In this document: positions 46,269 to 63,999 of the stretch, piece after piece
How the letters are laid out: every line of letters begins with the position of its first letter
Numbering within the stretch: position 1 is the first letter of the stretch
NCBI RefSeq assembly: GCF_002127325.2
Contig: NC_035448.2
Location: 114,663,660 to 114,727,659 of the forward strand
Reading direction: 5' to 3'
Length of the DNA stretch: 64,000 bases
Origin: Helianthus annuus
Taxonomy: Eukaryota; Streptophyta; Magnoliopsida; Asterales; Asteraceae
Notes under the pieces: model-generated
The model's database searches: none
The model's input: only the letters and a program-made list of their open reading frames with translations
What the model was told of the DNA's origin: nothing
Made by a program: the position numbers and the translations under genes

Positions 46269-48776
46269 TGTCACACCCCTATTTTCCACGTATCACCGGT
46301 GGGCCCGGTGGGGGTTCCGTGACGTAGTTGATATCGTCATAGTCAAACATACAATATATTAATGCACAGCGGAAGCAAAAGAAAGATTTATTTCAACTTA
46401 ATATTATTGTAATATCCAAGTATCACAAAATAGTCGAAATAGATCCACAGGCGGATCCAAACAAAGAGGAAACTTTATTTCAACAGACTTCATGCATCCT
46501 AAGCTTGCGAGACTTCTATGGATGCTAAGGCGTGGCCAGCCTATTACGCGTAGTACCTTCACTTAGCCTTTTTGGAAAATACGTCAGTTTACACTGGTAA
46601 ATACAATTTAACTGACTCATTTTAAAAATGTTTAAAAATTGATTTAAATGCCCGAGGCACAAAACTTTTTATAACTTGGGATAATTATTTGCTTAATAAT
46701 CTTGTAAAAGAATTACATGTCTGTTAAGCGTTCAGTTGCTCGGGTCGTACCGTTCAGTTGTACGCCTACACCCGTGTGCGAAGGTCGTGGCCATTCTTTG
46801 AATGATGCCAAGGATATCCGGGACATGGTCATTAAACCCCCAAAGGCGTTAAACAAACAAAACAGCATTTTTAAACAGGTTCTTTTGACAACACTCAACC
46901 ACCGACCGGTTAAGGTCAATTACCGACTAAGCGGTATTTTATATACCGTACCCCAAGCCCGTATAAGGGAAAATAAGTTAAACGTATTTACCTGAGCAAA
47001 GTATAAATTAAATATAGCGAGTGCACGTAGCTTTTACTGGGCTCCTAGATCTGGAAATTAAGGTTTTAATAACCTATTAGAATCCTAACGGGTCTTAAGC
47101 TTAGACCGGTTAGTTTTATATAAAGATTACGGTTTTAAACGCACGATAAGGCGAAGACCGTTTTAGAATGTGGTTTTGACCCAACAAGCTTGCATGCTTG
47201 TGTAATATGGGTAACATAATCACATTCTGGATTTTGAGACCGAAAAGATATGATTTGACCCGTTTCGGCTAAAATGGGTAAACTAGTTACATAAGCCGAT
47301 CCGAACGCGTAAAGTGCGTAACGAGTAACCATAAGAGTCATATACATGTTTCTGAAGTTAATATGCCTAAAATATGTTGTGATATCAGAATGATACCTTC
47401 CATTATGCCCCGAATGGTTTTGAACCAAAACTATGCCTCATAAGGGCAATTTGGTCATTTTATAAGGTGTAAAAGAGTTTAAAATAATAACCTAGGTTAC
47501 AGGTCTGATTAAATTAGTAAATATGCTTAATTTACTAAGTCATAACAGTAGGGTATCAAATATATGTGAAATTTATAACTTATAACCATACTATGCTCTG
47601 TAGGGGCATTTTGGTAATTTCACATATGCTTAAAGGGTCAAAACTGATATCCTGAGTTGAAAACATTAGCCTACTGTTAAAATATAAAAATCTTACTGAG
47701 TACATCAGTAGGTTTTATCCCCATATGCTTAACAAGGTTCTAGTGCATACTTATGTGCTAAAAATGCTTAAAAAGGCGATTTGGAGCCATTTCCGGGTTT
47801 TCTGTAAAAAGCTGATATTTTTAATATTCCAGCAAGCTCAAAATAATTTATTTAACATAACAAATCAGTAGAAAAAGGTTTGGGGTCAAAAGGATTTATA
47901 AAACTCATTTTATAGCTCAAAAGGGCAAAACCGGCATAAACCAAATTAAGCTTAGAATACTAAGTTATGCTCAGCCTAAAAATAAATAAAAATCTCCAAA
48001 AATCCCAAAATATTATTTCATAACAGTAGGTATAAGGTTTTGTATAAAAATTCGGGTTTAGATAGGCTATATGTAATTTACGCCATTTGATTACTAAAGA
48101 AGCTTTAAATTACGCTATTGAGCATAACTCTTAATCTATACCTCAAACTGATCTCAAATTTTAGGTGCAAGTTTATAAATCAGTAGCTAAGGTGTTTACC
48201 CTTTTACTTTTCCAAAAATCTCATTTTAAGGTCATTTGGGCATAATGGTCAACATATAAAAGATTAACGAAAACATGCATGTGAATAGGATGTCTAATGA
48301 ACCAAGTTGTATAATCTCAGAGAGTTATACTAACATGTAAATAGGTCCAAAAGAAGCTCTAAGGCAATCCTTAACTTGGCTTAAACGGGTCAGAACTGAA
48401 AGTCAAAGCAGAAGTCAAACTATGCGACTTTCGGTTCCAAACCGAGCCTATACTGAAAATTGTCGAGTTGAACATGTTGAGACATGTTCTTACATTAATT
48501 ACCAAGTTATTTTAATGATCAAACAGGTTGCATGTATCCTACATTGCTAATTATGCATTAATTTGCAAATAACCATTCTGTTGACTTTTTATAATCATCT
48601 TTGACTCGACAATTAACATAGTTAGAGTGGGATTCTGGAAATACCCTTTTAAGGGTTTGTTACCCACATAATTACCTACTTATAGGTATTTTTAATTCGA
48701 GATATTAGTGAGTAATTATTGACTAATCTCGAAGTCAAACCTTAATTACGACGGTTTGACTTTTAGCTAATTAACT
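46269..48776 (-). repeat. Element 4 LTR, distal part
   Basis: Inverted relative of element 3's LTR: for example 46925-46990 (gtattttatataccgta, cgtataagggaaaataa) mirrors 51355-51420. Short ORFs inside are incidental. Confidence 0.88.
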
Positions 48777-51700
48777 TGTAACACCTCAAAATTTTGTGTC
48801 CAATAATGTATTGACACGTGTCTTGAGTTGACACGTGGCATTTAATATTAAATAAAGGACTAAAATTGACAAACCTTGAAAGTATGTAAATTCGAGGGTT
48901 ATAAATGTCAAACAAGGGTAAGTATACTGTATAGTAACCCTAAACGATGCTTGTACCTTCAAACGAATAAATCATGGATCGTACGGAAGCGAAACGCGGA
49001 AGAAAGTGAGAGATTTCAAGCTGCGGGGGTTAACTGTGTCAACATGTTTAACTATACCTCTGAGTGACCCTTTGACGTACCCGAGGCTTTGTAACAGTAA
49101 AATACGCTCACTAGAATGTGCTATACAAATTCCGCGAAGTTCCGTTTTAAAACGAGATAGATATGATCAAATTCGTACGAGAAGGGTTAAAAGCGTCAAC
49201 AATGAAAGTCAAGGCTTTCCGAATAATTAACAAGATAACCGGGGACTTAACAATGCGGGTAAATAACACGAGGCCCTTAGTTGTAAATAATCAAGGGCCA
49301 AATCGCAAAGTTACCCCCTCAAACCCGAAAGGTCAGGTTGTTAATTACCAAAGATTTCGTTATTAATTGCAAAGATTTCGCAATGATTATAAAAGATTTA
49401 GAAATCTTGAAAAATTTAACCTAACGCGGGCCGCGTAAGAGATATGGTTAAGTTAACGCGGGCCGCGAGCCATCTGTTTATACGCGTCCTGATATTAGAA
49501 CTCAGGCGACCCGCGACCAAGATACAAGAAACCTTAACGCGGGCCGCGTGGGACACACAGATGCAGAGTGTATGGGCAGATTCAAAGATTTGGCTTCAAA
49601 ACGAAATTGTGAACAATCAATGAAGCATGGGTGCCCCCTACTCGACCCATAGCGCCTTAGGCCACCTGCCCATCATCCATACTCACTTGTAGGCTGAGTT
49701 GTAAGGATCTTAAAGCAATTCTTGCACTATAAATAGGCATAGATGGTTCACAATTGAAACACACCTCAAAACACATCCTCTGATCATTTCTGAAGCTCCC
49801 AAGTGTTCTTCTCTATTTCTAAGTCTTACATCAAATCTCTGTAAGTATGCCAAACCTTATATGGCTTTGTTTTTGCTTAGTTTAGCCTAAAAGTCAATCC
49901 GTCGTAACTAACGATTGACTTTGCGATAAATCACGAATGGTCCAGTGAATTCTCGAATCAAAAGTAGTTATGTGTTGGTATTTATGTGGGTAATAAACCT
50001 CTAAAAGGGTTCCCCCTGATCACCACTCTAACTAGTTCAAATGTCGAGTCAAACGTATACTTAAAAAGTCAATAGAAAGTCATTTTTGCGATTCTTGCAT
50101 AATCTGTAATATAGATTATATGAAACCTGTTTGAACACTCATAAAACATGATATTAAGTATATAAACTTGTCTAAACTCGTTTGATTCGGCCATTTGCCA
50201 TATTGACCCGGTTCGGAGCCGAATGTCGCAAAGGTTTGACTTTTGCTTTGACTTCAGTTCTGACCCGTTTTAGTGCAATATAGATATGCCTTAGGACTCT
50301 CTTAGGACCAGGTCACGTGATGGTTTCACCCTCTGTGACCGGTTCGTGGTCTGTCTGAGTCTTTTACGCATTTTCGTTAATTACTTAAAAGTTGACCGTA
50401 ACGCCCTTTTTAAAATAAAACGAGTATTTCGGACATGTGAAGGGACCATAACCTTGCTTAATAAATTCTAAGCATGTCCCTAAAGTTTCACGCCAATCCG
50501 AGGTCTAGAATGGGAGTTATGCTAAATAGCGCATTTATAAGAAACTTTGGTAATAAACGGCGCAATTAGCATAACGCCTACCTAAACCAAGATTTCGTCA
50601 CCAAAACTTTTACCCACTGTAGTAAAATAATATTTTGGGATTTTTAAAGATTTTTAATTAATTTTAACCTGCTCATAACCTGCGGTTATGGCTACGGTTC
50701 GGTAAATACCGAATATGCCCTTTTCGGCCAAAACTTGAGTTCTACAAGGTCTTTTGACCCGATTCCAGTTGCTACTGATTTTAAATAATAAATAAGATAT
50801 TTTAGACTTATTAAACTGATCGGGAAACTCAGGTTTCCTGTAGAACTCAGAAGGCCCTTTAAAAGTCTTTAAAATGACCTGAAAACCCCTACGGGGCGTA
50901 TAATGAACTAAAACTCGTTACGGGCATTATGGAAGGTATCCTACTGATACCACAACCTCTTTAAAGTATATTGACTTAGGAAAACAGTGTAGGACTCCTA
51001 CGGCTACCTGTTGCGCCTATTACGCGCACGGTTCGGCTTATGTAACTAGTTTACATAAATTAGCCGATACGGGTCAAACCATATCATTTTGACCCCAAGA
51101 TTCGGAGTGTGAATATTAAACCCGTATAAAACAAGTCTCCGAACTTGTTGGGTCAGAATCACATTCCATTCTCGGTTTTCGCCCTTCACGCGATTAAACC
51201 GTATCTATCCCTCGAAGCTAACCGGTCTAGGCTACGGCTAATATAAAGACCCGTTAGGATTCTAATAGGTTATTTTAAAACCTTCGTTCCAGAATAGGAG
51301 CCCCAGTAAAAGATATATGTGATTTAACCAACTAAGGACAATACTTGCAAAGGTAAATACTTTTAACTTATTTTCCCTTATACGGGCTTGGGTTACGGTA
51401 TATAAAATACCGCTTGATTGAGCATCAAATCTTCCATCGCTTAGGTGGTTAATTGAATAATTTGATCGGCTCATTTAAACAGTCTTGTTACTTAAAAGCC
51501 TTTGGGGGTTAATGACCATGTCCCGCATATCCTTGGCATCATTCGAAGAAATGGCCACGACCTTGACAGCCGGGTGTAGGCGTACACCCGGTATTATGTC
51601 TATATTATTAAAAGACGTAGCCGATGGTTTACCCACCTCGGTTTTACGCAATGTGGTGTGTCTATTGATCTTTAACCCGGACTAGATCCGGGCTACTGAA

Positions 51701-52166
51701 CGCAAAGAAGGAACATGTAATTCGTTCACAAGATTATAAATTTAAATAATTCTCCCAAGTTATAAAAGAGTTTGTGCCTCCTGCATTCAAATCAATTTTA
51801 AATAAACATTTTTCAAAAGTGTCGGTTGAATGTATTTACCAGTGTAAACTGACGTATTTTCCCAAAAAGATTAAGTGCAGGTACTACACGTAATCGGCTG
51901 GCAATAGCTCCTTAGCATCTTAAGAAGTCTCGCAAGCTTGATGTCTTATCTGTTGAACAATATTTTTATTTATTTTGATCCCTCCTGTGGATACTACTCA
52001 ACTACTTGTGATACATTCGATATTACAGTAAATGGTTGAATTATATTTATCTTTATGCTTCCGCTGTGCATTTATATATTGTGGTTTGACTATATTGTTG
52101 CCAACTACGTCACGGTAATCCCCTACCAGGCCCACCGGTGATACACGTGGAAATCGGGGTGTGACA
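48777..52166 (+). repeat. Element 3 5' LTR
   Basis: Begins TGTAACACCTC and ends GGGTGTGACA. A TATA box (TATAAATAG) is at 49728-49736, with three gcgggccgcg motifs 200-300 bp upstream (about 49424, 49456, 49537) plus a variant gcgacccgcg near 49503. Confidence 0.93.
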
Positions 52167-52341
52167 AGTTGGTATCAGAGCCAACATTGAGTGGATTAAA
52201 CACTATCCTAATGTGTTTAACCTCAATGACACAATTGCACATACTTGAGTCTAGACAAGAACATAGGACAAACTCGAATTGTTATTCCAAGGTTGTCTTT
52301 TTCTTTTATTATTGTTATTTAAAGTTTTGAAAGCAGGAAAT

Positions 52342-53550
52342 ATGCCGCCAGTGATTTTCCGAGGAAGAGGAAGGGGAAGAAGAGGCAGAGGAGAGATCGT
52401 TACTCACCACGATCACGAAGCTGGACCTTCAAATACGCGAGCTCCTTCGACCACAAGGAGTGAAGAACCGCAAAGGCGAAGAGACCTTTATGAACCTGCG
52501 AGGCATTCCACCTCGCATAGCTCGACGCCATCATACCGGCACTCATTCGGGCCAAATTCTGAAAACGATCCCAACAACCCGCAACCCTCCTACATACCTC
52601 TACAGTGTTCGGTATCGCACCGAAATTTTGACGACCCTACTCCATAATTCAGAGGTCAGTTTAACCCAGCTGACTACATCCAGGAACCTTCAGGCTTTGT
52701 TCCGTTAGGACCACAAGATCACTTCTCCGAAGATCATATGGACGAGGATACTGATCCAACAGAACCTGCTCGTGGTACGCCCACGCATCCAATAGAAATC
52801 TCTGATGGGTCATCCTTTCATGGTACACCCTATCAGGGACCAGATAGCTTCATGGCATTGTTTAATCAACACGAGTGGTACCACACGCCACAGACATCAT
52901 AACAGCCGCAACATCCGCAAGATCCCTCCGAGGATCCACGTTTCGTGGCAGTTACGCCACCACCTCCGCCACCGGTACAGCCAGTAATGCCTGATCCGCC
53001 AAGGCGTAGGAGGACAAATGCTCGTATGTCCACCCGAGGAGGGGAATTTCACTTCAGCACCCCTCGACACTCTAGTAGTAGCCACTACCCGCCACTAAAA
53101 GAAGAAGGACCTTCAAGTCCTGTACAGGAGGCGAACTCCACACCAGCTGCACCAACTTCGCCACCATTTGGGTATTACCACCCAATACCTGCATACATGG
53201 GTCCGTCGGCTTATAACCCGTTCGAACCATCATCACAAGCACATTACAACTACAACTATGAGCGCGACCCATATGTGGTAGCGGCTAGGTGTAATGCTCG
53301 CTATCCCGACAGAGCTCTTGGAAACATGGGAGTACCGGACTACTCAGCTCATGGGTATCCAGCACCTCCCAGACCTCCAGTTCCGCAACAGGCGCCACAA
53401 CCACGTTTCTCTCCTCCCGAACAAGAAGAAATACTCCACCGTTTGAGCCGTGTGGAAAGAGAATTCGAGGAAGAACGTAAGAGCCACCGAGGATTCCTCA
53501 AGGGCTTAGCAAACCTACTGAAGGGCAAGAAGAAGAAACGTGACCATTAG
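52342..53550 (+). pseudogene. Additional proline-rich ORF of element 3 (two in-frame stops)
   Basis: A 402-codon frame starts ATG at 52342, 160 bp after the primer site, and ends TAG at 53548-53550. Two TAA codons interrupt it (52645-52647 and about 52900), both in contexts where one C-to-T change from CAA explains them; the frame is otherwise kept over 1.2 kb. Visible: an arginine-glycine start (FRGRGRGRRGRG), proline/serine-rich middle (PPPPPPVQPVMP), aromatic YNYNYERDPY, and a charged helical C-terminus (HRLSRVEREFEEERKS) ending in KGKKKKRDH. The RG-rich and lysine-rich ends suggest nucleic acid binding; that is inference. No known domain is recognised. Confidence 0.65.
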
Positions 53551-54492
53551 TCCTTATGTATGTTCTAATGTAATGTTTATTTTAAATAAGTCCCTGCGAG
53601 GACGTTTATCGTATTTCAGTCCCTACGTGGACTTATCCTTTAGTCCCTACGCGGACACCTATCTAGTATTAGTCTCTGCGTAGACTTGTCTTTTTATTAA
53701 CCTCTATGTAGGTATGTACTTGTTAAAAGACCCGTTTAGGGCAGTGTGTAATCGTATTGAAGTTTTGGAATGTTATGTTATAAATTTCATTTTGTTATTA
53801 CTATATTTATGAAATAAATCAAAATCATTCCTTTTAATTTGATCTGCCTAAATAAAGAATCTTAAGAGTGAAACCTAGCCAGGTGTCTTTTAAGATCCGG
53901 CCAAGATGGTAAGACCTAATTAAAAGATTCAGAATTCCCAGTTAACCTCTGTAACCATGTTAACATTCATGGCAGATGTGATTCGTTAAAATCGCACACG
54001 TCATTCTTACACAAGAATCCTTTAAAGGATTCCAAAGCCCAAATTAATGATATAATAAATCATGGGTTAAATCATCAATAAGGATGATCACTTGATTTAA
54101 GCGGTGTAGTGCCTAAGGGCCGAATTATCAAACATCCGTTAGTGATGTAGTGCCTACGGGCCATACTTGCTGTCATAATAAGACAAAAGACAGTGGTGGT
54201 CTATGACTCCCTGTCAGAAGAGGGTAAAAGAACTACGGTTCAAACCTTCATACCTTGATTCTCTGTAATCCCGGCTAATATTATAATAACGTCCTCGTGA
54301 CTAGGCTTTTATGCCACTAGCAATATTAATTGTGATTAGGATAAGTATGTTCAAATCCTAAATAAAAAGTGAGTAACAGATTAACCGGATATGGTCTTCG
54401 TTACCATGGTTAATGAATTGCCATAAAAGACAATTCAATAATAAACTCCTAAATAGAATTTTCATTATCTTCTGCAGCAGATACAAGCTACT
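53551..54492 (+). other. Spacer between additional ORF and gag in element 3
   Basis: 53575-53720 holds five degenerate copies of a ~32-bp unit around agtccctacgtggac. Two copies of gtagtgcctaagggcc occur at 54110-54165. The end (ttatcttctgcag then gatacaagctactatgg) is a strong splice acceptor just before the gag ATG, suggesting that gag-pol may be made from a spliced RNA. No gene. Confidence 0.5.
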
Positions 54493-57400
54493 ATGGCGAA
54501 TCCTAATGGAGGAAATAGTCATACAAATGAAGATGATTATGATAATGCCCAAATAAATCTAACGGGCGCTCAACTCAAGGCTCTTGTCGACAACGCTGTG
54601 CAAGCAGCTCTAGATCGACAATATACCGAATCTCGAAGCAGAACTGTTTCCAAACCACCCTCTAAGCCGAAGACACACTCAAAATCCCACAGCAAACCAC
54701 TATCCAAGCCCAAGAAGGATGACGATAACCACTCGTCCAAGCCCAAGAAGGACGACGACAATCACTCGTCAAATGAAAATAGTGTTCGTCGCGAAAGGGA
54801 GTATACTGATGCTTCCCATGCCAGGGGCTGCACATACAAGTACTTTGTGTCTTGTAAACCCCGAGACTTTACGGGGGAGAAAGGTGCCGTCGAATGTATG
54901 ACATGGCTGGATGAGATGGACACTGTGGTGGACATCAGTGGCTGTGCGGAAAGGGATGTAGTGAAGTTTGTGTCGCAGTCGTTTAAGGGCGAGGCCCTAG
55001 CTTGGTGGAGGGCGCTGGTTCAGGCCTCGGGAAAAGCTATGCTTTATAGCAATACGTTGGAGGAATTCGTTTCTCTCATCAAAGAAAATTACTGCCCTCA
55101 GCATGAGGTGGAGAAGATAGAGTCCGATTTTGTGTCATTGGTGATGACAAATCTGGACTGCCAGGCCTACTTAACGAGCTTCAACACGATGTCTCGATTG
55201 GTTCCATATCTAGTTACCCCGGAACCAAGGAGGATTGCTCGTTTTATCGGGGGGTTAGAACCCGCGATAAAGGCTAGTGTGTAGGCCTCTCGGCCAACGA
55301 CCTTCAGGTCTGTGACTGACCTCTCTTTGTCCCTCACGATGGACGCGGTCCGACTGAGATCGCAGAGGAACAAAGAGGCCGAAAAGAGGAAGCGTGAGGA
55401 TGATACCTCGCGAAGGTCGGGAAAGAAGCACCGTGGGAACGGTGATGGCAATAGAGGAACAGAGTCGAGAAAAGATGGACAACAAACCGGAGAAAAGCCC
55501 AAGTGCAAAAACTGCCAAAAATTCCACTTTGGGAAATGCAGGTTTGGGCCGAACTCACAGTCCCAGTCAAAGACGCATACTTGTGGACTGTGCAAGTCCA
55601 AAAACCACAAGACTGTGGACTGTAAGAAGATTAAAGACGCGACCTGCTACAACTGTAGTGAGAAGGGGCACATCAGGAGCAACTGCCCCAAGCTCGCCAA
55701 GAAGACCGAGGAAACCAAAAAGAATAACGCTAGAGTCTTCAAAATGGATGTGAAGGAAGCATTGCAGGACGACAACGTAATCACAGGTACTTTTCTCGTG
55801 AATAATATATTTGCAAGAGTACTTTTCGATTCAGGCGCTGATAAATCCTTTGTAGACCAAAAATTTTGCAAACTGTTGAATATGCCTGTCAAAACCCTAA
55901 ATGTGAAATATGAAGTAGAGCTAGCAGACGGCACAGTAGAAACCGTCTCCACTATATTAGATGGATGTATGATATCCATTAAGAACCATTCTTTTCCTCT
56001 ATCTCTACTTCCCTTTAATCTGGCTGGTTTTGACATCGTTCTGGGTATGGACTGGTTGTCCCACAACCAGGCCCAGATCGTTTGCAATAGGAAACAAATT
56101 GTGCTAAAAACCCCGACTGGTGAAACGCTCATCGTTCGAGGGGATACGCAGTATGGGTTGCCCGAAAACGTAACTATGCTCAAAGCTTCAAGATGCTTAA
56201 AAAGAGGCTGTGTCATCTACATGGCACAAGTGATTATTGAAGAACCCAAACCGAAGATAGAGGACATTCCTGTCATTTCGGAGTATTCAGAAGTTTTCCC
56301 CGAAGACCTACCTGGGTTGCCACCAGATAGGCAGGTGGAATTCAGAATAGATATCATCCCTGGAGCAGCTCCTATTGCTAGAGCACCCTACAGGCTAGCA
56401 CCGACTGAAATGAAGGAATTGAGGACCCAGCTGGATGAACTGTTAGCAAAAGGTTTCATCAAGCCTAGTTCGTCTCCCTGGGGAGCACCTGTCCTGTTTG
56501 TGAAGAAAAAGAACGGATCGATGCGTTTGTGCATCGATTATCGTGAACTTAATAAGGTCACGATAAAGAATAGATACCCATTGCCAAGGATCGACGATTT
56601 GTTTGATCAATTTCAAGGGGCTAGCTATTTCTCAAAGATCGACTTGAGGTCGGGCTACCATCAGCTGAAGGTCAGAGATGAAGACGTGCATAAAACAGCA
56701 TTTAGGACTCGCTACGGTCACTACGAGTTCCTAGTGATGCCTTTTGGGCTCACAAATGCACCGGCTGCGTTCATGGATCTCATGAATCGCGTCTGCAAGC
56801 CGTACTTAGACAAGTTTGTCATCGTTTTCATCGACGACATTCTTATCTATTCAAAGAATAAAGTTGACCATGAGAAACACCTACGATGTATTCTCAAATT
56901 GTTGCATCGCGAGAAACTGTATGCCAAATTCTCTAAATGCGAATTCTGGCTACGAGAAGTCCAATTTCTTGGACATGTCGTAAGCGAGCGTGGCATCCAG
57001 GTGGATCCCGCTAAGGTAGAGGCGGTCATGAATTGGCAAGAGCCAAAGACGCCCACAGAGATCCGTAGTTTCCTGGGATTGGCAGGATACTACAGGAGAT
57101 TCATTGAGAATTTCTCAAGGATTGCTGCGCCCTTAACTTCTCTAACCAAGAAGAAGGAAAAGTTTATTTGGGGCCCTAAGCAGCAAGAATCCTTTGATAT
57201 TTTGAAACAAAGGCTGAGCAACGCTCCTGTGTTGACGCTACCAGAAGGTACCGAAGAGTTCGCAGTTTACTGCGACGCGTCACACACTGGCATGGGGTGT
57301 GTGCTCATGCAGAAAGGCAAAGTGATTGCCTATGCTTCAAGACAGTTGAAGGTGCACGAAAAGAATTACACCACCCACGACTTGGAGTTGGGTGCCGTTG

Positions 57401-59088
57401 TATTCGCACTAAAACTGTGGAGGCATTATCTATACGGAATCAAGTTTGTGATCTATTCAGATCACAAAAGCCTTCAACATCTGTTCAATCAGAAGGAGCT
57501 AAACATGAGGCAACGCCGTTGGATGGAGACCTTAAATGATTATGATTGTGAGATCAGGTACCATCCCGGCAAGGCGAATGTAGTCGCTGATGCCCTGAGC
57601 CGGAAAGAAAGGATGAAACCCATCCGCATCAATGCCAAGAGCATTGAAGTCAAGAATAACTTGATTGAAAGGATATTGGCTGCACAGCGAGAGGCTGTGT
57701 TAGAAGCTAATTATCCTAAGGAAAGGTTAGGAGTAACTGAGGAGCAGTTAACTCTTCACAAGGATGGAGTTTTGAGATTGAATGGGCGGATATGGGTTCC
57801 TATTTATGGAGGACTACGAGATGTTATCCTCCAGGAAGCCCATAGTTCCAAATATTCTATCCATCCTGGAGCAGATAAAATGTATCAGGATTTAAAGGCA
57901 AACTATTGGTGGATAGGCTTGAAAAAGTCTGTAGCTGCTTATGTAGCCAAATGCTTGACTTGTGCGCAAGTCAAGGCTGAGCATCAAAAGCCATCTGGCC
58001 TGCTACAACAGCCTGAACTTCCTGAATGGAAATGGGAGTGTGTAACTATGGATTTTATCACCAAGTTACCACAAATAAGCAAAGGAAACGACACAATATG
58101 GGTTATAGTCGATCGACTGACTAAGTCAGCTCATTTCTTACCCATCAAGGAGACTTATAGCTCCGATACATTGGCCCAGTTATATGTTGATAAGATTGTC
58201 GCCTTACATGGCATACCTGTGTCTATTATCTCTGATCGAGATACTAGATACACGTCTCATTTCTGGAAGAGTTTCCAACAATATTTGGGCACACGTTTGA
58301 ACTTTAGTACGGCTTACCATCCTCAGACAGACGGCCAGAGTGAGCGTACTATTCAAACGTTAAAAGACATGCTGCGAGCATGTGCTATCAATTTGGGTGG
58401 TAGTTGGGATAAGAACCTACCCCTAATCGAATTCTCCTACAACAATAGCTACCATACCAGCATAAAGGCTGCGCCTTTCGAGGCATTATACGGTAGGAAG
58501 TGTAGATCGCATGTTTGTTGGGCGGAAGTGGGAGAGGTCCAATTGTCAGGACCAGAGATAGTTTTCGAGACAACGGACAAGATTGTCCAGATTCGGGAAC
58601 GTCTCAAGGCTGCCCGTGATAGGCAGAAAAGCTACGCTGGCCCAAAGCGTAAGGATTTTCACTTCGATGTAGGTGAAAAAGTATTGCTAAAGGTATCACC
58701 CTGGAAGGGAGTGATGCGCTTCGGTAAGAAGGGTAAACTGAGCCCGCGATACATAGGACCTTTTGAGGTTATCGAATGTGTCGGGTCGGTTGCCTATAAA
58801 TTGAACTTGCCAGAAGAGCTCAATGGAATTCACAATGTGTTCCACATCTGCAATCTAAAGAAGTGCTTCGCTGATGAATCATTGGTGATCCCACACACAG
58901 ATGTGCATATAGATGAGAGCTTGAAGTTTGTGGAGAAGCCTTTGTCGATTGAAGACCGACAGGTGAAAAAGCTCCGAAGAAAACATGTGCCGATAGTTAA
59001 GGTTAAATGGGATGCCCGGAGAGGTCCCGAATTCACGTGGGAAGTTGAATCCACGATGAAGGAGAAATATCCCTATTTGTTTGAGTAA
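54493..59088 (+). pseudogene. Gag-Pol of element 3, one in-frame TAG
   Basis: A single 1,532-codon frame starts ATG at 54493 (MANPNGGNSHTNEDD) and ends TAA at 59086-59088. The sole interruption is TAG at 55282-55284 between gag and its zinc knuckles. Domains: a lysine/serine repeat (SKPKKDDDNHS twice), gag, CCHC knuckles ([15 protein letters not shown]), protease FDSGADKSF, reverse transcriptase with FIDDILIYS, RNase H YCDAS, integrase with H2C2 finger and TDGQSER, and chromodomain-like [13 protein letters not shown]. All catalytic motifs are intact. The TAG lies inside gag rather than at a gag/pol boundary, so a point mutation is more likely than programmed readthrough. Confidence 0.9.
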
Positions 59089-59123
59089 ATCTCAGGTCGA
59101 GATTTATTTTAAGGGGGTGAGGA

Positions 59124-62100
59124 TGTAACACCTCGAAATTTTGTGTCCAATAATGTATTGACATGTGTCTTGAGTTGACACGTGGCATTTAATATTAAAT
59201 AAAGGACTAAAATTGACAAACATTGAAAGTATGTAAATTCGAGGGTTATAAATGTCAAACAAGGGTAAGTATACTGTATAGTAACCCTAAACGATGCTTG
59301 TACCTTCAAACGAATAAATCATGGATCGTACGGAAGCGAAACGCGGAAGAAAGTGAGAGATTTCAAGCTGCGGGGGTTAACTGTGTCAACATGTTTAATT
59401 ATACCTCTGAGTGACCCTTTGACGTACCCGAGGCTTTGTAACAGTAAAATACGCTCACTAGAATGTGCTATATAAATTCCGCGAAGTTCCGTTTTAAAAC
59501 GAGATAGATATGATCAAATTCGTACGAGAAGGGTTAAAAGCGTCAACAATGAAAGTCAAGGCTTTCCAATAATTAACAAGATAACCGGGGACTTAACAAT
59601 GCAGGTAAATAACACGAGGCCCTTAGTTGTAAATAATCAAGGGCCAAATCGCAAAGTTGCCCCTTCAAACCCGAAAGGTCAGGTTATTAATTACCAAAGA
59701 TTTCGTTATTAATTGCAAAGATTTCGCAATGATTATAAAAGATTTAGAAATCTTGAAAAATTTAATCTAACGCGGGCCGCGTAAGAGATATGGTTAAGTT
59801 AACGCGGGCCGCGAGCCATCTGTTTATACGCGTCCTGATATTAGAACTCAGGCGACCCGCGACCAAGATACATGAAACCTTAACGCGGGCCGCGTGGGAC
59901 ACACAGATGCAGAGTGTATGGGCAGATTCAATGATTTGGCTTCAAAACGAAATTGTGAACAATCAATGAAGCATGGGTGCCCCCTACTCGACCCATAGCG
60001 CCTTAGGCCACCTGCCCATCATCCATACTCACTTGTAGGCTGAGTTGTAAGGATCTTAAAGCAATTCTTGCACTATAAATAGGCATACATGGTTCACAAT
60101 TGAAACACACCTCAAAACACATCCTCTGATCATTTCTGAAGCTCCCAAGTGTTCTTCTCTAGTTCTAAGTCTTACATCAAGTCTCTGTAAGTATGCCAAA
60201 CCTTATATGGCTTTGTTTTTGCTTAGTTTAGCCTAAAAGTCAATCCGTCGTAACTAACGATTGACTTTGCGATAAATCACGAATGGTCCAGTGAATTCTC
60301 GAATCAAAAGTAGTTATGTGTTGGTATTTATGTGGGTAATAAACCTCTAAAAGGGTTTCCCCTGATCACCACTCTAACTAGTTCAAATGTCGAGTCAAAC
60401 GTATACTTAAAAAGTCAACAGAAAGTCACTTTTGCGATTCTTGCATAATCTGTAATATAGATGATATGAAACCTGTTTGAACACTCATAAAACATGATAT
60501 TAAGTATATAAACTTGTCTAAACTCGTTTGATTCGGCCATTTGCCATATTGACCCGGTTCGGAGCCGAATGTCGCAAAGGTTTGACTTTTGCTTTGACTT
60601 CAGTTCTGACCCGTTTTAGTGTAATATAGATATGCCTTAGGACTCTCTTAGGACTAGGTCACGTGATGGTTTCACCCTCTGTGACCGGTTCGTGGTCTGT
60701 CTGAGTCTTTTACGCATTTCCGTTAATTACTTAAAAGTTGACCGTAACGCCCTTTTTAAAATAAAACGAGTATTTCGGACACGTGAAGGGACCATAACCT
60801 TGCTTAATAAATTCTAAGCATGTCCCTAAAGTTTCACGCCAATCCGAGGTCTAGAATGGGAGTTATGCTAAATAGCGCATTTATAAGAAACTTTGGTAAT
60901 AAACGGCGCAATTAGTATAACGCCTACCTAAACCAAGATTTCGTCACCAAAACTTTTACCCACTGTAGTAAAATAATATTTTGGGATTTTTAAAGATTTT
61001 TAATTAATTTTAACCTGCTCATAACCTGCGGTTATGGCTACGGTTCGGTAAATACCGAATATGCCCTTTTCGGCCAAAACTTGAGTTCTACAAGGTCTTT
61101 TGACCCGATTCCAGTTGCTACTAATTTTAAATAATAAATAAGATATTTTAGACTTATTAAACTGATCGGAAAACTCAGGTTTCCTGTAGAACTCAGAAGG
61201 CCCTTTAAAAGTCTTTAAAATGACCGGAAAACCCCTACGGGGCGTATAATGAACTAAAACTCGTTACGGGCATTATGGAAGGTATCCTACTGATACCACA
61301 ACCTCTTTAAAGTATATTGACTTAGGAAAATAGTGTAGGACTCCTACGGCTACCCGTTGCGCCTATTACGCGCACGGTTCGGCTTATGTAACTAGTTTAC
61401 ATAAATTAGCCGATACGGGTCAAACCATATCATTTTGACCCCAAGATTCAGAGTGTGAATATTAAACCCGTATAAAACAAGTCTCCGAACTTGTTGGGTC
61501 AGAATCACATTCCATTCTCGGTTTTCGCCCTTTCACGCGATTAAACCGTATCTATCCCTCGAAGCTAACCGGTCTAGGCTACGGCTAATATAAAGACCCG
61601 TTAGGATTCTAATAGGTTATTTTAAAACCTTCGTTCCAGAATAGGAGCCCCAGTAAAAGATATATGTGATTTAACCAACTAAGGACAATACTTGCAAAGG
61701 TAAATACTTTTAACTTATTTTCCCTTATACGGGCTTGGGTTACGGTATATAAAATACCGCTTGATTGAGCATCAAATCTTCCATCGCTTAGGTGGTTAAT
61801 TGAATAATTTGATCGGCTCATTTAAACAGTCTTGTTACTTAAAAGCCTTTGGGGGGTTAATGACCATGTCCCGGATATCCTTGGCATCATTCGAAGAAAT
61901 GGCCACGACCTTGACAGTCGGGTGTAGGCGTACACCCGGTATTATGTCTATATTATTAAAAGACGTAGCCGATGGTTTACCCACCTCGGTTTTATGCAAT
62001 GTGGTGTGTCTATTGATCTTTAACCCGGACTAGATCCGGGCTACTGAACGCAAAGAAGGAACATGTAATTCGTTCATAAGATTATAATTTTAAATAATTC

Positions 62101-62514
62101 TCCCAAGTTATAAAAGAGTTTGTGCCTCGTGCATTCAAATCAATTTTAAATAAACATTTTTCAAAAGTGTCGGTTGAATGTATTTACCAGTGTAAACTGA
62201 CGTATTTTCCCAAAAAGATTAAGTGTAGGTACTACACGTAATCGGCTGGCAATAGCTCCTTAGCATCTTAAGAAGTCTCGCAAGCTTGATGTCTTATCTG
62301 TTGAACAACATTTTTATTTATTTTGATCCCTCCTGTGGATACTACTCAACTACTTGTGATACATTTGATATTACAGTAAATGGTTGAATTATATTTATCT
62401 TTATGCTTCCGCTGTGCATTTATATATTGTGGTTTGACTATATTGTTGCCAACTACGTCACGGTAATCCCCCACCGGGCCCACCGGTGATACACGTGGAA
62501 ATCGGGGTGTGACA
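59124..62514 (+). repeat. Element 3 3' LTR
   Basis: Collinear with the 5' LTR, same motifs and TATA box. The 63-codon frame at 59223 and others here are mirrored in the 5' LTR and are not genes. Confidence 0.93.
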
Positions 62515-62519
62515 TAACT

Positions 62520-63516
62520 AAGCTAAAACGAATTTAGAAAGGTTAAGGACACTTACAAGAGTCCTAATTATGCTTAGGGAGCCTAATGAAAGTTGCTTGC
62601 TGATCAGAGAGCTCCAGAAGATGTGTTGTGAACTTATGCAAGTGAATGTTCAAATGGTTACAACTTCCTTCCTCTTATAGAGTAATCTTAGATGATTTAG
62701 ATGATGCCACAAAGGTCTATGCATGTCCCCTGATCATTACAACTGTCCCTAATGCATGAAAACCAATTTGCACAGCCCCTGGTATCCTCTTACAGGCCCT
62801 TAAGTCGGTTAACAGACCTTCAACTGGCATCTGCAGGTTTTCTGTCGCTGGCACTCTGACGCGGGCCGCGTAAGGTCATAGGGGACCTTCACGCGGGCCG
62901 CCTGGACCTGCAGAACCTGCCAAACAAGTTTCATAATTTGCATTTCAGCCCCTGGTCCTTTGTAACGTGGTTTTAAGTCCCCTATTTGCTATTTCAGCCT
63001 TCTAACTTGATTTTTAAGGGCTCTTGGACCTTTACTATCTTAGTTAAGTCCTTGACCAACTTTGAGATCATCCATAAGGCCCTAGAATTCCATGTTGACG
63101 CTTTTAACCCCTCGTACACGAATTTGATCATAGCTTTCTCATACAATAACGAAACTTTATGAAATTTTAACCACATATTCTAGTGAGTATATTTCATCGT
63201 TACAAAGCTTCGGGTCCGCCAAAAGGTCACTCAGGGGTAAACTTTGCACATGTTGACACTTTTAGCCCCTGTAGTTTGTAATTTCTAACTTTCTTTCATA
63301 TTTAGCTTCGTATGATCCATGATTTATTCGCTTGAAGGTAAAACATTATGTAGGGCTATTTTTGAATATATTTATCCATTGTTGACACTTTGGACCCTTA
63401 TATTCGCATAGTTTCCCTGTTTGTCAAATTTAGTCCCTCTAAAGTATTCTTTCTCACGTTCAGAGCTTATGACACGTGTTTATACATTATTGGACATGAA
63501 TTTTCAAGGTGTTACA
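62520..63516 (-). repeat. Element 4 LTR, proximal part
   Basis: Continues the LTR interrupted at 48776 and ends (plus strand) aaggtgttaca. Carries gcgggccgcg motifs near 62860 and 62892. Confidence 0.88.
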
Positions 63517-63552
63517 TCCTCACCCCCTTAAAAGAAATCTCGACCTCGAGAT

Positions 63553-63999
63553 TTATGGAAATAATTGAGGGTACTTCTCTTTCATTGTGGACTCTAACTC
63601 CCACGTATATTCAGGACCTCTGCGGGCATCCCATTTCACCTTGACAATAGGCACAAGCTTCCTTCGAAGCCTTTTTACCTGTCGATCCTCAATCGACACA
63701 GGTTTCTCCACGAATTTTAAGCTCTCGTCTATGTGCACATCTGCGTGTGGTATGACTAGCGACTCATCAGCTAGACATTTCTTCAGATTGCAGACGTGGA
63801 ATACGTTATGAATACCACTGAGCTCTTCAGGTAAGTTTAACTTATAAGCCACTGATCCAACGCATTCAATGATCTCAAATGGTACTATATACCTCGGGCT
63901 TAACTTACCTTTCTTACCAAATTGCACCACCCCTTTCCAGGGTGACACTTTGAGTAAAACTTTATCGCCAACCTCAAACTTAAGAGGTTTTCGCCTTTT
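63553..63999 (-). CDS. Gag-Pol C-terminus of element 4, partial
   Basis: The frame is open from the window end to the stop at 63553-63555, about 148 codons. It covers the region after integrase ([16 protein letters not shown]), [16 protein letters not shown], and the chromodomain-like [13 protein letters not shown] end. It closely resembles the element 3 protein. The start and catalytic domains lie outside the window. No defect in the visible part. Confidence 0.88.
   Translation of the reverse strand, partial: KRRKPLKFEVGDKVLLKVSPWKGVVQFGKKGKLSPRYIVPFEIIECVGSVAYKLNLPEELSGIHNVFHVCNLKKCLADESLVIPHADVHIDESLKFVEKPVSIEDRQVKRLRRKLVPIVKVKWDARRGPEYTWELESTMKEKYPQLFP

What the first reader, a model, noticed from the sequence alone, without database searches (positions are those of the whole stretch)
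52342..53550. Additional, uncharacterised ORF between primer site and gag in element 3
A 402-codon frame with RG-rich start, proline-rich middle and charged helical C-terminus sits where Tekay elements are usually drawn with no gene. Its frame is kept across 1.2 kb apart from two stops, both explained by C-to-T changes, which suggests it was under selection until recently. It matches none of gag, protease, RT, RNase H, integrase or chromodomain. It might be an RNA-binding, chaperone-like or anti-silencing factor; those are guesses.
Basis: partly seen in the sequence, partly recalled or inferred. Interest (0 to 1): 0.78.

Follow-up and report, generated by a model that had tools for sequence, protein, structure and literature searches.

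The report
Known extra gene of sunflower retrotransposon
The reading frame is a real accessory gene, already described in sunflower, that one group of jumping genes carries in front of its usual genes; this copy is broken, and what the protein does is still unknown.

Summary
The frame is real: 402 codons at 52342-53550 with two in-frame stops; 1 of 2000 shuffles has so few. It lies between primer site and gag in a structurally complete element with 3.4-kb LTRs and a TAACT duplication. It is not uncharacterised: Kazancev et al. 2024 (PMC11728184) describe the sunflower Tekay 13-2 5'aORF, 402 aa, proline-rich, nuclear signal RKSHRGFLKGLANLLKGKK, in 500 of 523 group-2-like elements; that string is in this ORF. 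Grass elements have an ORF0 in the same place (PMC3485330). Open Helianthus relatives abound (153 hits, best 89% identity). Their replacements are milder and more unevenly spread than neutral expectation, so the protein was under purifying selection; dN/dS on DNA could not be run. The model of a relative is mostly disordered with one confident C-terminal helix. My addition is a hypothesis: 23 ATGs precede gag and a strong acceptor-like site lies 15 nt before its ATG, so gag may come from spliced RNA and this protein from unspliced RNA. Known accessory gene, function open.

The parts
48772..48776 (.). target-site duplication TAACT, left
   Evidence: same 5 bases at 62515-62519
48777..52166 (+). 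5' LTR, TGTAACACCT...GGGTGTGACA
   Evidence: 31 transitions and 10 transversions in 3389 aligned sites against the 3' LTR, K2P 0.0122
52170..52182 (+). primer binding site TGGTATCAGAGCC, 3 nt after the LTR
   Evidence: sequence; that it pairs with initiator tRNA-Met is recalled
52342..53550 (+). 5' additional ORF (5'aORF, ORF0), 402 codons, two premature stops in this copy
52760..52860 (+). approximate place of the most conserved block of the protein (about residues 140-173, around HPIEISDGSS)
   Evidence: 148 of 165 proteins held carry the HPI.[IVL]S core
53416..53547 (+). C-terminal helix (placed from the model of relative P0002) and basic tail; holds the published nuclear signal
53551..54492 (+). 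spacer between the ORF and gag with 23 ATGs; no Pfam match at E<=1
54458..54478 (+). splice-acceptor-like site, last intron base 54477, 15 nt before the gag ATG
54493..55284 (+). gag (PF03732), ends at an in-frame stop at 55282; the same frame goes on into pol
55312..59088 (+). rest of gag-pol: zinc knuckle, protease, RT, RNase H, integrase
59111..59123 (+). polypurine tract AAGGGGGTGAGGA
   Evidence: sequence
59124..62514 (+). 3' LTR
62515..62519 (.). target-site duplication TAACT, right

Best explanation
It is the 5' additional ORF of a Tekay group-2 retrotransposon of the sunflower genus, an accessory gene under purifying selection, broken in this copy. Most likely working: the ORF is the first long frame on the full-length RNA; the protein, mostly disordered with an RG-rich start and a basic helical end, enters the nucleus and acts on the element's own RNA there (escort out of the nucleus or shelter from silencing), while gag-pol is made from a spliced RNA. 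Shown here or in print: identity, position, conservation, constraint, predicted nuclear signal. Inferred: translation from unspliced RNA, RNA binding, nuclear step, splicing before gag. My odds: identity 0.95, constrained protein 0.9, nuclear RNA-level role 0.4.
For: Published 402-aa protein with the identical nuclear signal string, 15.9% proline, in 500 of 523 group-2-like elements; the string is in P0001 and P0017, 2 of 165 proteins held. 153 relatives, six of them full length at 84-89% identity. Site-rate shape 1.88 against 8.7-579 in 20 neutral simulations, replacements milder (mean BLOSUM62 -0.28 against -0.82 to -0.62), proline kept (16.7% against 12.2-14.1%). In 7 close rows, 92 one-base replacements average +0.17 against a null of -0.55, 0 of 20000 draws as high. 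23 ATGs before gag, acceptor-like site at 54477, and 2 of 165 proteins (P0135, P0136) that are gene models running from this ORF straight into the gag start.
Against: No known RNA-binding domain; solved structures give nothing for the ORF and only 3 chance-level matches, E 0.43 to 0.97, for the profile; low-confidence model (mean pLDDT 51). The C-terminal helix is only weakly amphipathic: 1, 75, 83, 142, 257 and 279 of 2000 shuffles reach it in six relatives. A second AG in the spacer, 53711, scores almost as high as the one before gag. The two gene models use different donors and may be prediction errors; other models are plainly fused to unrelated genes. Two stops in this copy against 0.22 expected since insertion (Poisson 0.02) hint that this gene can be lost while the element still moves, so it may be helped in trans or be dispensable.
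Confidence: 0.5

Rival explanations
1. The protein steers integration: it is imported with the integration complex and tethers it to chromatin of the chromosome arms.
For: PMC11728184: group-2 elements, with the ORF, insert in chromosome arms and often in or near genes; groups 1 and 3, without it, towards the centromeres. Predicted nuclear signal.
Against: A correlation over three groups that also differ in chromodomain. Nothing in the sequence links it to integrase; no domain match.
Confidence: 0.2
2. It is a gag-related accessory, a nucleic-acid chaperone or particle component derived from or fused to gag.
For: Lies next before gag, RG-rich start, two gene models join it to gag.
Against: Profile of 56 relatives against the window's gag: probability 0.1%. 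Gag-pol has its own zinc knuckle.
Confidence: 0.12
3. The reading frame is incidental; the DNA or RNA is conserved for packaging or regulation, not the protein.
For: Lies in the leader, where packaging signals are usual (recalled); two stops in this copy.
Against: Amino-acid replacements are milder than neutral draws, also when the varying columns are held fixed (0 of 20000 and 0 of 5000). 47 of 164 relatives are 380-430 aa long; the others are shorter or longer models.
Confidence: 0.05
4. A captured host gene (the database names say extensin-like and the like).
For: Many relatives bear such names.
Against: The names seem to follow proline content (inference); no Pfam family in P0001, 1 weak hit among 56 relatives; P0135 and P0136 run on into gag.
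Confidence: 0.05

Closest known systems
Tekay 13-2 5'aORF, Helianthus annuus (Kazancev et al. 2024, PMC11728184)
   Same: Length 402 aa, place, nuclear signal string, proline content, disorder with C-terminal helix
   Different: This copy has two stops.
ORF0 of Retrosat2, RIRE3, RIRE8 and maize/sorghum homologues (PMC3485330)
   Same: Extra ORF before the retrotransposase ORF, LTRs of about 3 kb, similar LTR ends (TGTCACACCC-GGGCGTGACA there); Ka 0.2574 and Ks 1.6471 reported for ORF0 of Retrosat2 and three Oryza homologues
   Different: PMC11728184 reports no amino-acid similarity to the grass proteins, though its abstract speaks of structural homology with them; not tested here by alignment. 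Descent from one gene is open.
CERV of Cer1, C. elegans (PMC10309623)
   Same: As an analogy only: an element-coded nuclear protein needed for export of unspliced RNA
   Different: CERV comes from a spliced RNA, shares peptides with GAG and has a cysteine-rich loop; this ORF is a frame of its own with 0.5% cysteine.

Membership tests
Tekay group-2 5'aORF | ORF of about 400 aa between 5' LTR and gag, sense strand | tested here: met
Tekay group-2 5'aORF | nuclear signal RKSHRGFLKGLANLLKGKK | tested here: met
Tekay group-2 5'aORF | similarity over full length to sunflower proteins of this kind | tested here: met
   84-89% identity over the whole length in six relatives from H. annuus and H. anomalus
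Tekay group-2 5'aORF | RT phylogeny places the element in Tekay group 2 | not tested
   no reference set of RT lineages at hand
Chromovirus | chromodomain at the end of integrase | tested here: inconclusive
   no chromodomain family listed at E<=1; the tail of pol looks like one from memory
Grass ORF0 (Retrosat2, RIRE3, RIRE8) | sequence similarity to grass ORF0 proteins | not tested
   reported absent in PMC11728184; the 120 rows listed in each name Helianthus, read by eye, the unlisted hits were not seen
Known RNA-binding or silencing-suppressor domain | match to a described domain | tested here: not met
   Pfam: none in P0001, 1 weak unrelated hit among 56 relatives

The most novel reading that the evidence does not exclude
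Group-2 Tekay elements run a two-RNA programme like complex retroviruses: unspliced RNA makes a nuclear regulator (this ORF), and a spliced RNA, joined at the acceptor 15 nt before the gag ATG, makes gag-pol; the regulator sets the balance or carries unspliced RNA out of the nucleus.
Probability: 0.12. Interest if true: 0.75.

Novelty: already known. Interest (0 to 1): 0.3.

Why it matters
The gene itself is in print, so the finding is mainly a confirmation. What remains open, and testable, is why one very successful group of sunflower elements keeps a selected, probably nuclear protein that its sister groups lack, and how gag is translated behind it.

Tried and rejected
Gag duplicate: rejected. 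Host gene capture and database names such as extensin, cyclin-K, PERK: taken as misnaming of a proline-rich retrotransposon protein. Fold search: not run, because the model (mean pLDDT 51, pTM 0.18) would give meaningless matches. Reaching other genera: three protein searches found 153, 181 and 215 hits and listed 120 of each; the listed rows name Helianthus species, read by eye; the unlisted rest was not seen, so restriction to Helianthus is not shown. A helix-moment test gave weak, mixed support. Two paper searches aimed at ORF0 or splicing before gag listed no paper on splicing in Tekay; that is not exhaustive.

Limits of the selection tests: they rest on predicted proteins, which are open by construction. 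The null uses shuffled codons of the window ORF, a simple mutation model and a tree from the same data; 33 of the 36 rows of alignment A1 were used (P0046, P0056, P0059 left out for large gaps or shifted stretches) and 378 of 560 columns. A1 is the ORF plus 35 hand-picked, mostly full-length hits out of 120 listed. One search used 7 rows and 357 columns and left out 19 replacements that need more than one base change. The structure alignment A2 holds 56 relatives without the window ORF.

Full report
What is there. Element 3 spans 48777-62514 with LTRs of 3390 and 3391 bases (98.7% identical), a TAACT duplication on both sides, a primer site 3 nt after the 5' LTR and a polypurine tract ending at the 3' LTR. 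Between primer site and gag lies the ORF at 52342-53550: 402 codons, two in-frame stops. It is not a chance frame (1 of 2000 shuffles has two stops or fewer in its best frame). Gag (54493-55284, PF03732) and the rest of gag-pol (55312-59088; zinc knuckle, protease, RT, RNase H, integrase) follow in one frame, itself broken once at 55282.

It is known. In PMC11728184 (abstract, Introduction, sections 2.5, 3 and 4.14, figure legends and passages seen) the sunflower Tekay 13-2 element has a 402-aa 5'aORF with nuclear signal RKSHRGFLKGLANLLKGKK, 15.9% proline and 92.5% predicted disorder; 500 of 523 group-2-like elements carry it, groups 1 and 3 do not. The same string is in this ORF and its proline content is 16.4%. 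Grass elements Retrosat2, RIRE3 and RIRE8 have an ORF0 (PMC3485330; abstract and three sections seen). PMC11728184 found no amino-acid similarity between the sunflower and grass proteins; its abstract speaks of structural homology, which section 2.5 describes as shared disorder and, in some, a long C-terminal helix. A review, PMC7264820 (first of three parts and passages seen), says such ORFs occur upstream or downstream of gag-pol. So the statement that these elements are drawn with no gene here does not hold. Steinbauerova et al. 2011, cited in two of these papers, I have not seen.

Relatives. The ORF, read with X at its stops, found 153 proteins; the six best full-length ones are 84-89% identical, in H. 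annuus and H. anomalus, and the top cluster stands for 231 sequences. Two further profile searches found 181 and 215 (one listed each). Of 164 relatives held, 47 are 380-430 aa long; of 165 proteins 148 carry the HPI.[IVL]S core and 84 the KGK tail, many models being partial or fused. No Pfam family fits the ORF (1 weak hit among 56 relatives); solved structures give nothing for the ORF and 3 matches at E 0.43-0.97 for the profile. The AlphaFold2 model of the open relative P0002 with 55 others has mean pLDDT 51, one confident helix at 360-395 and two short weak ones, in line with the published description.

Selection. DNA copies could not be fetched, so I tested the protein set against neutral change. 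On 33 rows and 378 columns, the among-site rate shape is 1.88 against 8.7-579 in 20 of 20 simulations; columns with 90% or more agreement are 31% against 17-24%; replacements are milder and proline is kept. On 7 close rows, 92 one-base replacements have mean BLOSUM62 +0.17 against -0.55, 0 of 20000 draws as high, and 0 of 5000 when the varying columns are held fixed. The most conserved 20-residue block starts at residue 141. This supports purifying selection; it is not dN/dS, and the limits are given in Tried and rejected.

Decay of this copy. From the LTR difference, 0.22 stops are expected in the ORF since insertion and 0.96 in gag-pol; 2 and 1 are seen. Gag-pol fits simple decay. The ORF has a mild excess (Poisson 0.02), which could mean that it was already broken in the parent and supplied by other copies. 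Open relatives exist.

How gag may be reached. After the LTR, two ATGs stand before the ORF and 23 between its end and the gag ATG, so plain scanning or reinitiation along the full RNA looks unlikely (inference). A site reading ctgcag|CAG ends 15 nt before the gag ATG and is at the 99.9th percentile of 3662 AGs in the window; candidate donors lie in the LTR (51880) and in the ORF (52654) (matrices from memory). Against it, another AG in the spacer, 53711, scores almost as high (5.70 against 5.78). Two of 165 proteins, P0135 and P0136, are gene models that pass from the ORF into the gag start, with different donors. Together this suggests, but does not show, a spliced gag RNA. Cer1 of C. elegans, where a nuclear protein CERV is needed to export unspliced RNA (PMC10309623, abstract and passages; PMC12786077, passages), is the analogy for my preferred role; no sequence link was tested or is claimed.

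Verdict. Observation confirmed, interpretation partly supported, gene already known, function open. Interest 0.3.

Noticed in passing
55282-55284: Gag-pol is one frame in element 3 but has a premature in-frame stop at the end of the capsid region; the frame continues open to 59085.
   Followed up: partly
46269-48770 and 63081-63999: Minus-strand LTR-like DNA (pieces 72-81% identical to element 3's LTR) on one side, and an LTR start plus pol end on the other: element 3 seems to sit inside the 3' LTR of an older, inverted relative.
   Followed up: partly
53585-53690: Short imperfect repeats of the form gtccctacg-ggac in the spacer after the ORF (seen by eye).
   Followed up: no
relatives such as P0018, P0091, P0143, P0162: Sunflower database proteins named extensin-like, cyclin-K-like, PERK or formin-like contain this retrotransposon ORF, some fused to a kinase or other gene models: annotation noise.
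   Followed up: partly
53711: A second acceptor-like site in the spacer scores almost as high as the one before gag.
   Followed up: no
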